Source of the DNA: a virus
DNA length: 27,338 bases
Virus record (IMG/VR): IMGVR_UViG_3300033146_004023
Coordinates: 1 to 27,338 of that record
Direction: 5' to 3' (one strand)
Positions within the stretch are counted from its first letter, which is position 1, and the number at the start of each line of letters is the position of its first letter. Positions 10,736-27,338 of this stretch are shown here, one piece after another. The notes under the pieces are model-generated. The model did no database searches, was not told where the DNA came from, and was given only the letters and a program-made list of their open reading frames with translations. A program made the translations under genes and the position numbers.

Positions 10736-11836
10736 CTAAATATAACTTAATATTTCGTCTTTTGAAATACTACACTTTCTATTTTTACTTAAGTTTTGCC
10801 CACTTTGTAACATTTCTAAATTATTTATGCCTCCTATTACCTTTGCAGGAATATTATCCTTAAATCCTTGAAATATAGAATATTTATGGTCAAGGTGATA
10901 ACCTTCCTTTGTATGTGCTCGTTTATCAAAATTTTCTAATACTGTTAGATCATTTTGATTCGTATATCTCCAAACTAATTTCGTATAGTCTCTAAAATTC
11001 TTGACTTGTTCTTCTGTTATCCAATTTCCATTTTGTTCATTTATTTTCCTAATTTTACTTTTAATCATTTTATTACTAGAAACAAAAGGTACACCATATT
11101 TTTCTAAATTAGTATTTTTCATTTTTTCTAGGACCTGTTTATTTTTCATTGGATGCATTTCACCGAATCTTTCTAAATAAGTAGATACCCTTTTTTCCTT
11201 AAGAGCTGGAATAAAATTATTTTTTAGAAAATCTTTAGAAAACATTGGATTACTTACTCCATAATTTTTTATAAATGTATTTTTAACTTTGTCCTGTATT
11301 TCTTTTTTTCCAAAAGAGGTCTTATATCCATATTCTTTAAGATTCTTTTCCATTTGTTTTTCAATAAATTCTTTGGAAGAAATAATTGCATTTCCTCTTT
11401 TCCTGCCATCTTTTATTTCTAATGGATCTCTAGTCCCATATTTTTCTTCTAATGTATCGTTTATTTTCTTTTTTACTTCTTCATTCCTCTGTACACATTT
11501 TGGTGAACAAAAATTATAAAAACCTTGATCCAAAACCTTTTCTTTAATAAATTCCTTTGTTATACCTTCTTTTCTAACATTTTTATATATACTATATTTT
11601 GAATTATTTTTAGAATATAAACCAGAACATTTGCTACTACAAAATGTCGAAAAACCTTTTGAAAAACCCTGAAATTTTATTTCATTTTTACAATTTTTAC
11701 ATCTTGGTTTTTCAACATTATTATATTTTATATATACTATCTCCTCAGAAATATTAAGTTCTTTTAATTTTTTTCTTTTTAATCTTCCTAGAGGTGATAA
11801 TAATTCTTTTTCTATAAATTTTTTTGTAATTTCCAT
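10736..11836 (-). CDS. HNH homing endonuclease with KYG repeats
   Basis: 366 aa. The N-terminus has Cys pairs (CKNC, CSSKC, CSPKC) that look like zinc-binding fingers. The middle has repeats built around 'LEKYGV-x-NP' (EEKYGTRDP, IKNYGVSNPMF, LEKYGVPFV), typical of DNA-binding arrays in phage endonucleases. The C-terminal nuclease motif is YHLDHKYSIFQGF, then NLEMLQSGQNLSKNRK, giving the H-D-H and N residues of the HNH fold. It is a close relative of the gene at 15820-16692. The start codon sits in a hairpin that overlaps the late promoter. It lies between the actin-like gene and a small gene, without visibly splitting either. Confidence 0.85.
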   Translation of the reverse strand: MEITKKFIEKELLSPLGRLKRKKLKELNISEEIVYIKYNNVEKPRCKNCKNEIKFQGFSKGFSTFCSSKCSGLYSKNNSKYSIYKNVRKEGITKEFIKEKVLDQGFYNFCSPKCVQRNEEVKKKINDTLEEKYGTRDPLEIKDGRKRGNAIISSKEFIEKQMEKNLKEYGYKTSFGKKEIQDKVKNTFIKNYGVSNPMFSKDFLKNNFIPALKEKRVSTYLERFGEMHPMKNKQVLEKMKNTNLEKYGVPFVSSNKMIKSKIRKINEQNGNWITEEQVKNFRDYTKLVWRYTNQNDLTVLENFDKRAHTKEGYHLDHKYSIFQGFKDNIPAKVIGGINNLEMLQSGQNLSKNRKCSISKDEILSYI

Positions 11837-14681: not shown

Positions 14682-15014
14682 TTACTTAATAATCCCAAGC
14701 TTAATAGCCACTCTCTTCACAATGGACTTCTTTTCCTCATATAATTCACACTTTAACTCTTTATTTTTATCCTGAGGATTCCAAGCCGCATGAGAGTGTC
14801 TGCCTGCATGAGAGTATGTATATGAAACATTTTCTGGGTGAGAGCATGATTCATATGTTTCCCAACCATCAACATCATAGATAGACTCACTAAAGAATTT
14901 ACAATTTTTGCAGAAAACTCCTTTTCCCGGAAGTTCATATCCTTCTATAGGAGTTCTTTCAGGCTCTTTATTTGATGTCTTAGAATAAAATTCTGTTTCT
15001 GTGATATTAATCAT
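14682..15014 (-). CDS. Small zinc-ribbon protein, 110 aa
   Basis: The chosen start (MINITETEF) overlaps the TGA of the upstream gene as ATGA, implying coupled translation. CKNCKFF near residue 36 and later CSHPEN and KCELYEE supply four cysteines, plus His-rich SHAGRHSHAAW between them; a zinc or iron-sulfur site is likely. The C-terminus is basic (KKSIVKRVAIKL). No precise family recognised. Confidence 0.72.
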   Translation of the reverse strand: MINITETEFYSKTSNKEPERTPIEGYELPGKGVFCKNCKFFSESIYDVDGWETYESCSHPENVSYTYSHAGRHSHAAWNPQDKNKELKCELYEEKKSIVKRVAIKLGIIK

Positions 15015-15808
15015 TTTGTGCACCCCCACTCTTTATTTAGAACACTTAATAAGAATTTATTTACCTTATCAGCATCTGGTTTTTCAGGAAGATTTGATTT
15101 AAGCAAAAGAATATCTACTTCATCAAGAATATCACTTACCTCATCAATAATTTTCTGTGTACTATGTTTGCCTTCTTTGATCTCCCTAATGTAATCTGCA
15201 TTTTTAAGGGGAAATTTAATGAACTCTGTTTTCAGAAGCTCTTTGACTTCTAAACTTATGCGTAAACTATGACTGAGGGACTTAAAATCCGTTTTTGATT
15301 CTGTCTGTGCTGTAGATTTTGTCCTATTTCCAAATTGATTGTATAACTTCATAACTCTCTCAATAAAATATTGACCCGAAACATTCCCCTCAAACATTTT
15401 ACCCAATATAGATACATATTCTACATCATCATATGTGCCTGAACCCCTTGGTCCTGGAGCCATGACAAATTTGATATACTTATACTCTTTAGCATTGATA
15501 AATTTTTTCATATCATCAAACAAAAACTCACCAATTTTGTTTGATTTGCCAATGGTTTCAATTGGTGATTTTTCTAAAAAATCTTTTACAAAAGTATCTA
15601 ATTCATTGTATCTAGCACCTTTAATCCCAAACTTTTTGGTTTGACCTAAAGCGTAACCCACGAAAGATTTCATATTTCTATTTAGAAATAATTTATAATT
15701 ATCTTTAATATTAGAAACAACCTCATCTTTTTTATAAATTATAGTATCTTCATAATCCATAATTCCTTTAATTTCATATTTTCTTAGTAATTTTTCTGTT
15801 TCTGACAT
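15011..15808 (-). CDS. C-terminal piece of COG3541-type nucleotidyltransferase
   Basis: 265 aa from the ATG at 15808, preceded by AAGGAAAG and only 11 nt after the HNH stop. The body matches the C-terminal half of the predicted nucleotidyltransferase family that includes YcgL: NRNMKSFVGYALGQTKKFG, then GARYNEL, and later KSLSHSLRISLEVKELL followed by FPLKNADYIREIKEGK. A head of about 20 residues (MSETEKLLRKYEIKGIMDYE) precedes the homologous part. The catalytic GS...DxD region is on the gene at 16809-17270. I infer that the two products associate to give one enzyme. A C-terminal stop overlaps the next gene. Confidence 0.75.
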   Translation of the reverse strand: MSETEKLLRKYEIKGIMDYEDTIIYKKDEVVSNIKDNYKLFLNRNMKSFVGYALGQTKKFGIKGARYNELDTFVKDFLEKSPIETIGKSNKIGEFLFDDMKKFINAKEYKYIKFVMAPGPRGSGTYDDVEYVSILGKMFEGNVSGQYFIERVMKLYNQFGNRTKSTAQTESKTDFKSLSHSLRISLEVKELLKTEFIKFPLKNADYIREIKEGKHSTQKIIDEVSDILDEVDILLLKSNLPEKPDADKVNKFLLSVLNKEWGCTK

Positions 15809-15819
15809 TCTACTTTCCT

Positions 15820-16692
15820 TTATATTATATCTTTTAACTCCACCGAACACTTTTCTCTTTTTGAACAATTATCTTTATAATAAAGCATTTCCAAATTCTT
15901 AACTCCGCCAATGATATAAGGTAATATACCGTTTTTAAAACCTTCTAATTTACTATATCTATGGTCTAAATGATAAGCATTTTTGTTAAATTTATTATGA
16001 CCTCTCAACTCTATATTTTTAACAAATTTGGAATTCTTCTCTGTTTCTTTGCGAACCAATCTTAAATATAAATTAAAATCTGATAGCTCTTCTTGTTTTA
16101 ACCATTTACCATTATCTTCGAAATAAGTTCTTCTTGTTTCAGAACTCAAATAAAACTCTGTTCCAAATTTTTTAATACTTGTTTTTTTAGATTTTTCTTT
16201 CTTATCTTCTGTTTGTAAATAAAATTCTTTTCCATATTTATCCAAACAAGTTGCTTTTGATTTCTCTTGAATTACTTTTGATTTTAATGGATTATCAACA
16301 CCAAAATTTTTAATACAAGTTTCTTTCTTTTTCTGCTTTACTTTATCTGAACCACTTACATTTTTGCACCCATATTTCAATAAACAAGTTTCTTCACTCT
16401 TTTTCCTATTATTAAAAGTTTCACTACCATATTTTTCTAATTTTGTTTTCCTCTTTCTATCTTGAACACCTTCAACTTTCTGAGCACAAGAATTATCACC
16501 ACAACTATTGGTGTACCCTACTTTGAAGTTGATAAATTTTCTATTTTTATTACAGATAGGACAACTTACATCTTCTATACTATGGTATATTTTATATAAT
16601 TCTTCTGGTATTAGATTTAATTTTTTCAAATTAACGGATATAATACCGCCATTTTTATTTAAGAAATTTTCTTTTATGTATTGTTGAGTCAT
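15820..16692 (-). CDS. HNH homing endonuclease with KYG repeats
   Basis: 290 aa. The N-terminus has a zinc-finger-like set (CPIC, SCGDNSC). The middle has repeats around 'EKYG/KNFG' (LEKYGSETF, LKYGCKNV, IKNFGVDNP, LDKYGKEFYL, IKKFGTEFYL). The C-terminal HNH reads YHLDHRYSKLEGF, then NLEMLYYKDNCSKREK. It belongs to the same family as the gene at 10736-11836. It lies exactly between the two pieces of the nucleotidyltransferase and carries its own pseudoknot element and late promoter upstream. The start at 16692 has only a weak AGGGG ribosome site. Confidence 0.87.
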   Translation of the reverse strand: MTQQYIKENFLNKNGGIISVNLKKLNLIPEELYKIYHSIEDVSCPICNKNRKFINFKVGYTNSCGDNSCAQKVEGVQDRKRKTKLEKYGSETFNNRKKSEETCLLKYGCKNVSGSDKVKQKKKETCIKNFGVDNPLKSKVIQEKSKATCLDKYGKEFYLQTEDKKEKSKKTSIKKFGTEFYLSSETRRTYFEDNGKWLKQEELSDFNLYLRLVRKETEKNSKFVKNIELRGHNKFNKNAYHLDHRYSKLEGFKNGILPYIIGGVKNLEMLYYKDNCSKREKCSVELKDII

Positions 16693-16716
16693 TTGATGAA
16701 CCCCTATAATTAATTT

Positions 16717-16805
16717 TATAAGAGTGTAGATTTGACGGGTCTACATTATATATACACTATTAGAGACCCGCCAGAGCAAATAGTGTATATATAATATCTC
16801 TTATA
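16717..16805 (-). ncRNA. Structured pseudoknot element before the HNH gene (copy 3)
   Basis: Minus strand: P1 TATAAGAG (16798-16805) with CTCTTATA (16717-16724). P2 is a perfect 17-bp stem, 16779-16795 with 16745-16761. The pseudoknot pairs GGCGGGTCT (16764-16772) with AGACCCGTC (16734-16742), 9 bp with one G-U. P1 is identical to copy 1, while P2 and the pseudoknot stem differ in sequence and keep pairing. The P2 loop shares GCTCTG with copy 1, and the leader to the gene is also similar. Confidence 0.75.
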
Positions 16806-16808
16806 TAA

Positions 16809-17270
16809 TTATTTATATTTTAGTTTTTTGAGTAAATCCTTAATATTATCTCCTTTTTTAATAACCTTTTTAATATCTTCAATAGAAAAATTTTCTTCAA
16901 TTTCAATTAATTCTTTTGATTTAATACCTTCGGTAAACATTGAGTGAAGAACATCAATAGCACCTGTTTCAGAATTCTGTAATTGATTAAAAAAGCTGTA
17001 AATACTATGTAAAGTAAAATCAATATCTTCTGCCGAGTTTCTCACTTTTGAGTTATTGGTATCTCTAACATAAGAGCTTAAATCTTTTTTCAGCATCACC
17101 GATTCTTTAGAAGGAATGAAGATACCTTTTAGGTCTGTATCTGAATTTTCATTATCTGTTCCATATAATTTTGAACCACTCACAGTAACATAGATTACTG
17201 TGGCTCCTGTTTTTTCCTCAAACTCCTTAATATAGAGTTCCATTTTATTTTTTAAATCTAATTTGGTCAT
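16809..17270 (-). CDS. N-terminal (catalytic) piece of COG3541-type nucleotidyltransferase
   Basis: 153 aa. It starts at 17270 after AAAGGATTAAAA. Catalytic residues are clear: VSGSKLYGTDNENSDTDLKG holds the GS motif and the two metal-binding Asp (DTD) of the polymerase-beta fold, followed by IFIPS. DIDFTLHSIYSFF and AIDVLHSMFTE also match the family. Homology ends there. A tail of about 40 residues follows and finishes VIKKGDNIKDLLKKLKYK. The stop abuts the endonuclease module. The remainder of the enzyme is at 15011-15808. The tail end resembles that of the metallopeptidase N-piece (TIKKRKFKDLKEL), the other split gene here. Confidence 0.8.
   Translation of the reverse strand: MTKLDLKNKMELYIKEFEEKTGATVIYVTVSGSKLYGTDNENSDTDLKGIFIPSKESVMLKKDLSSYVRDTNNSKVRNSAEDIDFTLHSIYSFFNQLQNSETGAIDVLHSMFTEGIKSKELIEIEENFSIEDIKKVIKKGDNIKDLLKKLKYK
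16810..16817 (-). promoter_or_regulatory. T4-type late promoter overlapping the N-piece stop
   Basis: TATAAATA on the minus strand covers the last sense codons and stop of the nucleotidyltransferase N-piece. It would drive the pseudoknot and HNH gene late. Confidence 0.5.
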
Positions 17271-20743: not shown

Positions 20744-20828
20744 TATAAGGGGTTTTTCTGCTATATACTATACTCTCACGCCAGACTGTATAGTATATAG
20801 CAGAATTAAGTCTGGGGAGACTCTTATA
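20744..20828 (+). ncRNA. Structured pseudoknot element (copy 4)
   Basis: Plus strand: P1 TATAAGGG (20744-20751) with CTCTTATA (20821-20828), one wobble. P2 is a perfect 18-bp stem, 20756-20773 with 20788-20805. The pseudoknot pairs CCAGAC (20781-20786) with GTCTGG (20810-20815). It has the same order of stems as copies 1 and 3, on the other strand and with different stem sequences. The leader after it (ATTAATTTTATAGGAT) is also similar. Confidence 0.75.
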
Positions 20829-20851: not shown

Positions 20852-21914
20852 ATGAGAAAACTAACTAGAGAAGAAGCTCAGAAAAAATTACCCGACCATG
20901 TTGAATTATTAGATTATGTGCCTCACGGAGTGTGCCCATTTTATTGTGAAAAGCATAATCATGAGTTTAAAGGAAGTTTAGGCAAACAATGTAAATTCTG
21001 TTTGGGCAGATTGGTGGACGAAGAAGTATATGTAAATAGATTAGAAGAAATGAATCATATATTATTTCCTATTGAAAAATTTATAGACAATAAAACACCC
21101 ATTAACCACAAATGCTCTTGTGGATGTGGCAATATTTACACAAAATCTCCTCGTAAAGTTATAGCAAATAATCAATGTGGAGGAAGAGGTTTTTTCTCAT
21201 AAAGAAGGTAGTGATATGATTACTGATTCCAACTGCAGTATTATAAAAATTACTAATAATCATAGGACTTATACATTTCGATATGGCACTTGCAATAAAG
21301 ATTTTATTGATATACCTAAACATGGTGCAAATAGAAAAATGTGCAAAGATTGTAAAGCAAAAGAAATAGAAGAAAATCCTGTCAATAGAATAAAATATGA
21401 AGATTTTATATTATTATTGAAAAATAAAAATCTTAAAACAAATCTAATTGGTGAATACTTGTCTATGGGAACAGGCACTGAATTCAAGTGCCAATATTGT
21501 TCAAGAATATATGTGACTGCTCCTCGAACATTTCTGAATGATGTATCGTGTGGATGTCAAAGTTATTACTATCATGATAAAAAATATTACAAAAACAAAA
21601 AGACAATATTATATCTTATAAAGTATAATGAGTATTTTAAAGTAGGATTGACTATTTTTGCCAAAGAACCCTCTTTTGACATATTAAAAAAGCGATTTGG
21701 ATATGATATAAGGAGAGGCAATAAAGTCGAAATTATAGATTATATTATTCATGATAATGGTGCTTTATTGTATAGCATCGAAAACAAAATAAAAGCAAAA
21801 ATACCTCCGAACTTAAGAATAAAAAAGAGTGAAGTACAGATAAAGTCAGGATATAGTGAGATGTTCAAAGAAAACTTTATAAATAATCTTAAAGAGTATA
21901 AGGAGATAATATGA
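20852..21914 (+). CDS. Zinc-ribbon plus GIY-YIG-like homing endonuclease (one-base frameshift)
   Basis: The first frame (MRKLTREEAQKKLPDHVELL...) carries cysteine pairs such as CKFCLG and CSCGCGNIYTKSP, and stops at 21202. The frame resumes at the six-base run at 21190-21195 as FSHKEGSDMITD and continues with CKDCKAKE, CQYCSRIYVTAPRTF, and a C-terminal module: ILYLIKYNEYFKVGLT then LKKRFGYDI. The latter resembles GIY-YIG/T5orf172-type nucleases ('Y-L-I-K-...-KVG-T...RF'). The repeated 'C..C-x-I-Y-T-x-P-R' segments are those of phage Hef-like endonucleases. The whole protein would be about 354 aa. Its TGA overlaps the next ATG. Confidence 0.6.
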
Positions 21915-24975: not shown

Positions 24976-26098
24976 ATGAATAAAGTTGTAGGAATATTTG
25001 ATGAATTAAGAGAAGCCAATGGCGGCACCGAAATATCAGATACTCTCAAAGACAAGTTTTTGGCACAAATCGACACGCCAAAAAATCAAGAGGGATATTA
25101 TCTTGATGCGTATGGTGAAAGGATATCTTTCAATGGAATACGCCAGCTAAAAAAACCCTATACAAAATTAAATCTAAATAATAGACAACAGCGAGAAATA
25201 TTAGCCTGCCATCAAGATTATTTCTATTTTAGAAGAAACTACTGTAAAATTCTTACTAAAAGTGGAATAGGTAGGCCTGAACCAAGGGAATATCAAGTAA
25301 GGCTCGAAAACGAGCTCGTAGAAGGGGATGATGTTCTTGCTTTTTTTCCAAGACAGTGTATACACAAAGATACTATTATTAACAAAGAAAACAATGAAAC
25401 AATAAAGGATTTATACGATAGGTACTCTCATAGAAGCACTTTCATAAAAGATGATTTATTTATAGATACAATTGAAATACTTGACAAAAATGAATTTGTT
25501 TATAATACTAAAGGAAAAGTAAAAATAAATTATTTGCACAAAACAAAAAAATTACCTCTATATGAAATTATACTAGAAAATGGATTATCATTAAAAGGAT
25601 CAAATAAACATATTATTATAGATGAGAATTATAATGAGATAACTTTAGAAGATTCGCTAAATAAAAATATTATAACTCAAAAAGGAATCTCAAAAGTTAC
25701 AAAGGTAATAGATCATAACACAGAAATGAATATGTATGATATAGGTATAGGTAGCACAGATGAGTTATATTTTAGTGATGATATATTAAGTCATAATAGC
25801 GGCAAAACTGTTACGATAGCCATGTACCTTTTACATTGTGCACTGACAAGACAAAATATTAATATAGGAATTGCCGCAAATGTTGTTTCGCTTGCTCAAG
25901 AGGTTCTTGATAAAATTAAAAAAATATATATTGAAATGCCTATATGGTTACAACCAGGTCTCAGATGCTTTTAGGGGTTTTTCATTAAGTATTTTATATT
26001 GTTCTCATGAAGATGAAATGGTAACAGTGAGAGATAAAGAAACAGGTGAAATAAAAGAAATTTCACTGAAAGAATTAAATGATGAATTAGAAGCATAG
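24976..26098 (+). CDS. Terminase large subunit, N-terminal gene: ATPase part with mini-intein and split-intein N-half
   Basis: The T4 gp17-like packaging motor. N-terminal extein residues 1-127 end in EGDDVLAFFPRQ. A cis intein follows (25357-25797). The extein then resumes SGKTVTIAMYLLHCALTRQ, so the ligated Walker A is FFPRQSGKT, equivalent to T4 SRQLGKT. It continues to IYIEMPIWLQPG, then breaks: the frame stops at 25974, while the next frame gives SDAFRGFSLSILY, equivalent to T4 PDAVRGNSFAMIY. About 20 residues between LQPG and SDAF seem to be missing, together with the frame. ILY is the first half of Walker B and is followed at once by a 32-residue split-intein N-half (26000-26095) and a stop. 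The rest of the protein is at 26637-27338. The ribosome site is weak. Confidence 0.85.
25357..25797 (+). other. Cis-splicing mini-intein in terminase Walker A
   Basis: 147 residues. It starts with Cys (CIHKDTIINKENNETIKDL, block A). A block-B-like NKHIII follows within LSLKGSNKHIIIDENYNE. YDIGIGSTDELYF (block F) comes near the end, and the last residues are ILSHN, with Ser as +1. No endonuclease domain is present. The insertion splits the P-loop between Gln and Ser, a typical intein site because it cannot be lost by imprecise deletion. Confidence 0.88.
26000..26095 (+). other. Split intein, N-terminal half (32 aa)
   Basis: It starts CSHEDEMVTVRDKETGE, continues IKEISLKELNDELEA and stops. This is only block A of an intein, much shorter than the usual split-intein N-half of about 100 residues. 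It lies after terminase ILY. The short-N, long-C arrangement matches the atypically split TerL intein known from Ace Lake metagenomes (AceL-TerL, 25 + 104 residues). Confidence 0.85.
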
Positions 26099-26118
26099 TG
26101 TATATAAAATCAGAATAG

Positions 26119-26166
26119 ATGAAACATCTTTTATAAATAATATAAAAGGAGAGATAAATGTTTCAT
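26119..26166 (+). promoter_or_regulatory. Hairpin hiding the GIY-YIG start codon, with late promoter in its loop
   Basis: ATGAAACAT (26119-26127) pairs perfectly with ATGTTTCAT (26158-26166), which starts with the endonuclease ATG. The loop contains TATAAATA (26132-26139) and AAAGGAGAG. Read-through transcripts would mask the AUG; transcripts started at the late promoter lack the 5' arm. This parallels the known control of T4 I-TevI. Confidence 0.65.
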
Positions 26167-26614
26167 ACAGTATATAAAACCACAAACATGCTAAATAATT
26201 TTGAATATATAGGTGTGCGTACTACAGAGAATATAAATGATGATTATCTTGGTTCCGGTAAACATTTAAAGTGAGCAATTAAAAAATGCGGTAGAGATAA
26301 TTTTAAAAAAGATATTCTTTATGTTTGTGACACCAAAGAAGAATGTTATGAAATTGAGAGAAGATTGGTTACTGAAGATTATGTATTGAGAGAAAACGTT
26401 TATAATATTAAACCTGGAGGTTACGGGTCACTAAACTTGAAATGGACTGAAGAACAACAGAGTACAATCAAAAAAATATTATGCTTCTTTTGAAAATGAA
26501 ATTTTTGATATTACCAAAGGATATTTAAGTGAATTTTGCGATGAAAAAGATTTAAAATACATAACTATGTATAATACATTAAAAACAATAACCAGAGGAA
26601 ACAAAAAAGGTTAG
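26158..26614 (+). pseudogene. GIY-YIG homing endonuclease between split terminase halves (one stop, one shift)
   Basis: It starts MFHTVYKTTNMLNNFEYIGV, then YLGSGKHLK, an in-frame TGA, and AIKKCGRDNFKKDILYVC, the classical GIY-YIG core. EIERRLVTEDYVLRENVYN and IKPGGYGSLNLKW follow. A shift at the seven-base A run at 26470-26476 leads to YYASFENEIFDITKGYLSEF and a short DNA-binding C-terminus ending in GNKKG. Repaired, it is about 151 aa. Such enzymes sit between split-intein gene halves in other 'fractured' phage genes. Whether it is active cannot be told: the shift looks like sequencing error, but the TGA may be real. Confidence 0.7.
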
Positions 26615-26636
26615 CAACTCTTTGAAGGAACATATA

Positions 26637-26951
26637 ATGACAAAAAATAATAAATATGAAATATTAACAAAGGACGGTTTTAAAGATTTTGATGGATTAC
26701 TAGAGTCACGACACTCCGAATATGTTAGTATAACTTTTAGTGATGGCACCGACTTCACATGTTCAAAGGACCATAAATTATATAAAGATGATGACTATAT
26801 TAATGTTCTTGAATTGAAAGAATCGGATATAGTATCAAATAAAGTAATATCTAAAATAAGTATTATAAAAGGAAAAGAGGAAATTTTTTATGACCCAGTA
26901 AATGTCAAGGATAATTCATCTTATATTTCAAGTGGTTTGGACTCACATAAT
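26637..26951 (+). other. Split intein, C-terminal half (105 aa)
   Basis: It begins MTKNNKYEILTKDGFKDFDG. It contains the block-B-like SKDHKLYKDD, the block F region EEIFYDPVNVKDNSSYISSG, and ends LDSHN before Cys. Length and several stretches (NGF/DGFxxFxG, YDPxNV, SLYITxGxxSHN-like end) fit the C-half of AceL-TerL-type inteins. Confidence 0.87.
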
Positions 26952-27338
26952 TGTGATGAGGTTTCATTTATCCGAAATAATCTTTGGGAAGAGTTTATGG
27001 ACTCAGTTATGCCAGCAATGGCGGCAATCCAAGACTCACAAGCCATTTTTAGTTCAACAGCCAATGGTTTGAATCATTTTTATCACATGGTTGAAGGTGC
27101 CAGAAAGGAAGAAAATGGGTATAAGCTTTGTGAGGCAAGTTGGAAAGAGGTTCCTCGTTGGCATAAAGATGGGAGATTAAAAACTTCTGAAGAATTTATG
27201 GCTGAGCAGGTGGCCAAAAATGGGCTTACCCATTTTAATCAGAATTTTGGTAATGAATTTTTAGGTTCTTCCCATACACTAATAAATGGAACAGTACTAA
27301 AAAACATAAGCTACATGAAAGATGAAGATATTATTTTC
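26637..27338 (+). CDS. Terminase large subunit, C-terminal gene with split-intein C-half (partial, runs off right edge)
   Basis: The ATG at 26637 follows GAAGGAACATATA. Residues 1-105 are the intein C-half, ending SGLDSHN with Cys as +1. The extein then reads CDEVSFIRNNLWEEFMDSVM: the Asp-Glu completes Walker B (ILY-CDE, against T4 IYIDE). IFSSTANGLNHFYHM follows (T4: TTTPNGLNHFY), the motif III coupling region. Further extein resembles gp17 (THFNQNFGNEFLGSSHTLING) to the edge, where the nuclease domain should begin. Trans-splicing of the two products would rebuild the motor. The frame is open to the last base (234 codons). Confidence 0.9.
   Translation, partial: MTKNNKYEILTKDGFKDFDGLLESRHSEYVSITFSDGTDFTCSKDHKLYKDDDYINVLELKESDIVSNKVISKISIIKGKEEIFYDPVNVKDNSSYISSGLDSHNCDEVSFIRNNLWEEFMDSVMPAMAAIQDSQAIFSSTANGLNHFYHMVEGARKEENGYKLCEASWKEVPRWHKDGRLKTSEEFMAEQVAKNGLTHFNQNFGNEFLGSSHTLINGTVLKNISYMKDEDIIF

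What the first reader, a model, noticed from the sequence alone, without database searches (positions are those of the whole stretch)
15011..17270. Nucleotidyltransferase turned into genes-in-pieces by an HNH module
The catalytic half (GS...DTD) and the 'KSFVGYALGQ' half of a COG3541-type nucleotidyltransferase are separate genes with their own ribosome sites, separated by a complete HNH gene plus pseudoknot. Family homology stops at HSMFTE in the first and resumes near NRNMKSFVGY in the second. Both carry extra residues at the break (about 40 at the C-terminus, about 20 at the N-terminus). This parallels the phage Aeh1 NrdA case, where an endonuclease insertion made two subunits held together by acquired tails.
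Basis: partly seen in the sequence, partly recalled or inferred. Interest (0 to 1): 0.7.

Follow-up and report, generated by a model that had tools for sequence, protein, structure and literature searches.

The report
Phage nucleotidyltransferase split by HNH gene
In an uncultured phage, a selfish DNA-cutting gene sits exactly inside a nucleotidyltransferase gene and has turned it into two neighbouring genes with added end-pieces, most likely giving an enzyme built from two chains; this is a clean new case of a rare but already known phenomenon.

Summary
On the minus strand, a 153-aa gene (17270-16809) and a 265-aa gene (15808-15011) are the N- and C-terminal halves of one phage nucleotidyltransferase (PF10127/phrog_388, the T4 NrdC.11 family), separated by a complete HNH homing-endonuclease gene (16692-15820). 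Nothing is lost; the 1180-bp insert adds a 39-aa tail and a 20-aa head. All 23 residues invariant in 12 intact homologues survive. Both extra pieces carry real codon signal. The insert has no group I or II intron core (a group I intron elsewhere in the window is found by the same search) and lacks every intein splicing residue. A relative of this HNH splits the terminase gene of a related virus in the same way; another sits inside a split-intein ribonucleotide reductase. Best reading: an Aeh1-NrdA-like two-chain enzyme made by HNH insertion. That the tails hold the chains together is inferred, not shown. New member of a known kind.

The parts
16929..17270 (-). Gene 1 core: N-terminal half of the nucleotidyltransferase, with GSKLYGTDNENSDTD and the third acidic residue in EDIDF
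   Evidence: phrog_388 E 1e-23, RlaP E 2.3e-10; aligns to L010 residues 13-112
16809..16928 (-). 39-aa C-terminal tail of gene 1 plus stop; not in intact relatives
   Evidence: no counterpart in homologues; codon score +18.2 bits in frame against -10 and -25 in the others; AlphaFold2 predicts three short helices, pLDDT about 74-81
16736..16795 (-). H-type pseudoknot (S1 16779-16795/16745-16761, S2 16764-16770/16736-16742) between gene 1 and the HNH gene
16701..16725 (-). Leader ACTCTTATAAAATTAATTATAGGGG before the HNH start, near-identical to the leaders of two other endonuclease-like genes in the window
   Evidence: sequences; other two copies; 0.02 expected by chance
15820..16692 (-). HNH homing endonuclease gene, 290 aa (DUF7487 / phrog_3339; YHLDHRYS motif)
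   Evidence: 37% identical to a second HNH in the window at 10736-11836
15749..15808 (-). 20-aa N-terminal head of gene 2; its SD (AAAGGAAAG) overlaps the HNH stop codon
   Evidence: codon score +9.0 bits in frame against -1.5 and -10.2; SD context
15011..15748 (-). Gene 2 core: C-terminal half of the nucleotidyltransferase (DTIIY...KSFVGYALGQ...)
   Evidence: phrog_388 E 1.5e-38; aligns to L010 from residue 113 on

Best explanation
An HNH homing endonuclease gene with its own leader inserted precisely into a single-chain nucleotidyltransferase gene of the T4 NrdC.11 family. The host gene now makes two polypeptides that reassemble by themselves into one enzyme. Chain A carries the catalytic carboxylates. 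Chain B starts at the next strand of the fold and supplies the helical C-terminal part. The ribosome stops at the end of gene 1, the HNH gene is read from its own start, and gene 2 starts from a Shine-Dalgarno that overlaps the HNH stop codon, probably coupled to it. The tail and head were acquired or evolved as coding sequence at the break and probably help the chains dock. Shown: the exact split, intact relatives, kept residues, coding character of the extra pieces, no detectable intron core, no intein chemistry. Inferred: assembly, activity, docking role and translational coupling.
For: Exact one-residue break with nothing lost against intact relatives at 50-64% identity. Eight IMG/VR relatives are uninterrupted, and 1382 of 1461 matching phage records cover at least 80% of the intact protein in one place. 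All 23 residues invariant across 12 intact homologues are present. The window branch is no longer than the closest intact sister overall (0.35 against 0.39). Tail and head have codon signal only in the used frame; none of 51 open out-of-frame stretches reaches the tail's score. The group I model finds only the parM intron (94 bits) and nothing in the insert; group II finds nothing. A related HNH (32% identical) splits TerL of another virus at GASKK|ENGY with a 30-aa tail and a 26-aa head; TerL is normally essential, so such splits must be tolerated. The phage precedents Aeh1 nrdA and phage 25 gene 43 make working two-chain enzymes (PMC2988022).
Against: There is no expression, binding or activity data. 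No second virus with the same nucleotidyltransferase split was found, so persistence of the split through evolution is not shown and a very recent insertion would look the same. In the N half alone the window branch (0.28) is longer than that of L010 (0.19). A two-chain structure prediction could not be run.
Confidence: 0.62

Rival explanations
1. The insertion broke the gene recently. The nucleotidyltransferase is accessory, the two open halves are non-functional or only gene 1 does something, and decay has not started.
For: Only one virus with this split was found. The enzyme is probably dispensable for the phage (inference from its being an accessory gene). Homing endonucleases do land in non-essential genes.
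Against: Gene 2 has its own start and SD, and both halves gained extra coding sequence with codon signal, which a fresh insertion would not need. All invariant residues are kept and the branch is not lengthened overall. The same architecture exists in the packaging gene of a related virus.
Confidence: 0.18
2. The insert is removed from RNA by an intron type not recognised here, giving a full-length protein. The HNH would then be intron-encoded.
For: The precise junction is what an intron would leave. The same window has a group I intron in a parM-like gene, and phage ICP1 splices an HEG-interrupted gene (PMC10448857).
Against: The group I model scores the parM intron at 94 bits and nothing in the insert, and group II finds nothing. 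Only about 240 and 70 nt lie outside the HNH gene, and most of the first part is codon-structured tail plus a pseudoknot. The group I splice-site rule (U before the intron, G at its end) cannot give the exact homologous joint (read from the sequence).
Confidence: 0.07
3. The tail and head are the decayed halves of a split intein (a fractured gene) that lost splicing and now serve only to dock the chains.
For: The same arrangement with true split inteins exists in relatives: TerL of the L010 virus and NrdA with an HNH of this same family (L048). The tail fits the first 12 intein positions in exact register from residue 1 (LIEIEE; p about 0.007).
Against: Allowing any register p is 0.18, and the head does not fit intein C-terminal blocks. 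No Cys1, no terminal Asn, no +1 nucleophile, and most of the intein is absent. The tail is predicted helical, whereas intein N-termini are strands.
Confidence: 0.09

Closest known systems
Aeh1 NrdA-a/NrdA-b split by MobE
   Same: HNH homing endonuclease inserted in a nucleotide-metabolism gene without an intron, giving two genes; extra residues at the break (the tails of Aeh1 are from own knowledge); RNA structure before the endonuclease (PMC2988022)
   Different: Different host gene and a different endonuclease (MobE against a DUF7487-type HNH; not compared directly here); two-chain activity has been shown only for Aeh1
T4 topoisomerase genes 39/60 (MobA) and phage 25 gene 43A/43B (Seg43)
   Same: Endonuclease-associated fission of a phage gene; phage 25 also has a stable RNA structure upstream of the endonuclease RBS that does not sequester it (PMC2988022)
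   Different: Other genes and other endonucleases
T4 mobD next to nrdC.11
   Same: An HNH homing endonuclease abuts and overlaps the same gene family in T4 (mobD 57208-56429, nrdC.11 56445-55435)
   Different: In T4 it lies upstream of an intact gene; here it is inside the gene
Fractured genes with split inteins (Dassa et al. 2009, cited in PMC10448857)
   Same: N-half gene, endonuclease gene, C-half gene, with added sequence at the break; HNH of the same family in NrdA of L048
   Different: Here no splicing residues remain and the added pieces are not significantly intein-like

Membership tests
NrdC.11 / RlaP-type nucleotidyltransferase (PF10127, phrog_388) | Profile match across the two products | tested here: met
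   phrog_388 E 1e-23 (gene 1) and 1.5e-38 (gene 2); RlaP E 2.3e-10 (gene 1), only 0.065 (gene 2)
NrdC.11 / RlaP-type nucleotidyltransferase (PF10127, phrog_388) | GS...DxD plus third carboxylate and the conserved C-terminal residues | tested here: met
   23 of 23 invariant columns present
NrdC.11 / RlaP-type nucleotidyltransferase (PF10127, phrog_388) | Nucleotidyltransferase activity | not testable with these tools
   substrate unknown; fold matches to ANT/KNT enzymes and HalB are weak (E at least 0.0066)
Genes-in-pieces by homing endonuclease insertion (Aeh1 NrdA type) | Endonuclease ORF between two halves that are one gene in relatives, with no residues lost | tested here: met
Genes-in-pieces by homing endonuclease insertion (Aeh1 NrdA type) | No self-splicing element in the insert | tested here: met
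   RF00028 and RF00029 negative in the insert; the parM intron is the positive control for RF00028
Genes-in-pieces by homing endonuclease insertion (Aeh1 NrdA type) | The two products assemble into an active enzyme | not testable with these tools
   needs co-purification; no two-chain prediction available
Group I intron-encoded HNH | Group I catalytic core around the HNH gene | tested here: not met
Split intein (fractured gene) | Cys/Ser/Ala at intein position 1, Asn at the end, Cys/Ser/Thr after it | tested here: not met
   the positions are G, E and D at the two junctions; profiles negative
HNH homing endonuclease (DUF7487 / phrog_3339) | Family profile and HNH-type motif | tested here: met
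   DUF7487 E 2.7e-16, phrog_3339 E 4.4e-12, YHLDHRYS
HNH homing endonuclease (DUF7487 / phrog_3339) | Cleaves the uninterrupted allele at the insertion site | not testable with these tools
   needs an in vitro cleavage assay

The most novel reading that the evidence does not exclude
A family of phage HNH elements fractures host genes through split inteins that later lose splicing, so that former intein halves survive only as docking tails of two-chain enzymes (nucleotidyltransferase here, terminase in L034).
Probability: 0.09. Interest if true: 0.75.

Novelty: new member of a known kind. Interest (0 to 1): 0.45.

Why it matters
Only a few host genes are known to have been turned into two-chain enzymes by homing endonucleases. 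Here is a case mapped to one residue in another enzyme family, with a parallel case in terminase for the same HNH family, and intein-joined versions of the same arrangement in relatives. Together they give a comparative set for asking how a fresh gene break becomes a stable two-subunit enzyme, and where the added tails come from.

Tried and rejected
Group I or II intron in the insert: rejected. The Rfam scans also missed the parM intron, so their silence was not used. Split intein, active or decayed: splicing residues absent; remnant similarity not significant over all registers. Tail or head as a duplication of the neighbouring half or of HNH sequence: no significant protein match. Another virus with the same nucleotidyltransferase split: not found with the queries tried in viral contigs or genome contigs. 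HNH relatives generally preceded by a pseudoknot: only 1 of 49 loci, so the pseudoknot is not a family-wide feature. The solved-structure sequence search gave no relative.

Full report
Observation. The window is a 27.3-kb fragment of an uncultured virus. Genes at 17270-16809, 16692-15820 and 15808-15011 on the minus strand are as described. The outer two match one family, phrog_388, which is the T4 NrdC.11 family; PMC1524935 reports that NrdC.11 orthologues match COG3541.

Where the break lies. Relatives in other IMG/VR viruses (L002, L009, L010, L011, L021, L024, and the more distant L004 and L026) are single uninterrupted genes. In public phage records 1461 match the intact protein and 1382 cover at least 80% of it in one place. 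Aligned to L010, the window's first gene runs to residue 112 (window 16929) and the second resumes at residue 113 (window 15748); the alignment around the break is gapless. The insert is 1180 bp and not a multiple of three. In a predicted model of intact L010 (pLDDT 81, pTM 0.72) the break falls in the short turn between helix 100-108 and strand 115-118, so the catalytic chain keeps all acidic residues but gives up the following strand.

Are the halves still constrained? All 23 residues invariant in 12 intact homologues are present. On a tree of the homologous parts the window branch is 0.35 against 0.39 for L010; by halves 0.28 against 0.19 (N) and 0.39 against 0.34 (C). There is no sign of decay, but a recent split would look alike.

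The added pieces. Tail and head have no counterpart in relatives and match neither half nor the HNH. Codon usage marks them as coding: +18.2 bits in frame for the tail (-10.2, -24.7 in the others) and +9.0 for the head (-1.5, -10.2); none of 51 open out-of-frame stretches of similar length reaches the tail's value. AlphaFold2 predicts the tail as three short helices at moderate confidence.

How is the insert handled? Not by a known intron: the group I model finds the ORF-less intron in the parM-like gene (12983-12679, 94 bits) and nothing in the insert; group II finds nothing. Not by protein splicing: intein positions 1, last and +1 are G, E and D. I also tested whether the pieces are dead intein halves, because relatives carry true fractured genes: TerL of the L010 virus has CVGYDTLIDIENLGSIKIGDLYNLL, then an endonuclease, then an intein C-half ending ILSHN|T, and NrdA of L048 has intein halves around an HNH of this same family. 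The tail fits the intein start in exact register (p about 0.007) but not when all registers are allowed (p 0.18), and the head does not fit. I keep this as a low-probability alternative.

Parallel case. In L034 an HNH 32% identical to this one splits the terminase gene: the first part ends ...VTGASKK plus a 30-aa tail, the second begins with a 26-aa head and resumes at ENGYNLCEASW, where the L010 virus reads GARKKENGYNLCEAKW. Its HNH start overlaps the upstream stop and the downstream gene begins 3 nt after the HNH stop, leaving no room for an intron core outside the coding sequence. An upstream junction of the same gene carries intein C-half sequence, so both kinds of split occur in one gene.

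Expression cassette. The HNH gene is preceded by an H-type pseudoknot and the leader ACTCTTATAAAATTAATTATAGGGG. The GIY-YIG-like gene at 243-1265 and the gene at 20852 have pseudoknots and near-identical leaders (0.02 matches expected). By analogy with T4 endonucleases, whose upstream RNA structures and late promoters restrict expression (PMC2988022), this is probably a shared control region; that is inference.

Judgement. The event is the known genes-in-pieces type (Aeh1 nrdA, phage 25 gene 43, T4 39/60; PMC2988022). It is notable that T4 mobD, also HNH, abuts nrdC.11, so this gene family has attracted HNH elements at least twice. Assembly of the two chains and the docking role of the tails remain untested.

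Noticed in passing
window 12983-12679 (-): ORF-less group I intron (RF00028, 94 bits) interrupting a parM-like gene just after MKENTIAIDLG; the Rfam scans missed it, one search found it.
   Followed up: partly
window 11960-11870 (-): The parM-like gene appears to end early at TCT TAA, while the +1 frame continues with NVSFVEAPMEFSNVRGYLL: a frameshift, a sequencing error or programmed frameshifting.
   Followed up: no
window 24976-27338 (+): Terminase large subunit with an intein at the Walker A site (PRQ|C...HN|SGKT), a frame break with missing sequence near 25960, and what looks like a split intein at the Walker B site (SILY|CSHEDE... and ...SHN|CDEVSF).
   Followed up: partly
window 1343-1282 (-), 14486-14379 (-), 16795-16736 (-), 20756-20815 (+): H-type pseudoknots directly upstream of four endonuclease-like genes; three of these genes also share the leader ACTCTTATA(A)RATTAATTATAGG.
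   Followed up: partly
L034 1926-4534: Terminase gene in pieces: intein C-half at one junction, plain HNH insertion with tail and head at another.
   Followed up: partly
L118 709-1728 and L113 1189-2367 (virus of L010): Terminase fractured by a split intein with a 25-aa N-part and an endonuclease with a DUF559/MTES_1575-type C-terminus between the halves.
   Followed up: partly
G012 81000-92100 (record of L036), G009, G010: Up to ten group I intron matches within 11 kb of one viral contig, near an HNH gene.
   Followed up: no
L032 2380-2495: HNH relative with a 16-bp plus 11-bp pseudoknot upstream, the only one of the 49 related HNH loci scanned that has one.
   Followed up: partly
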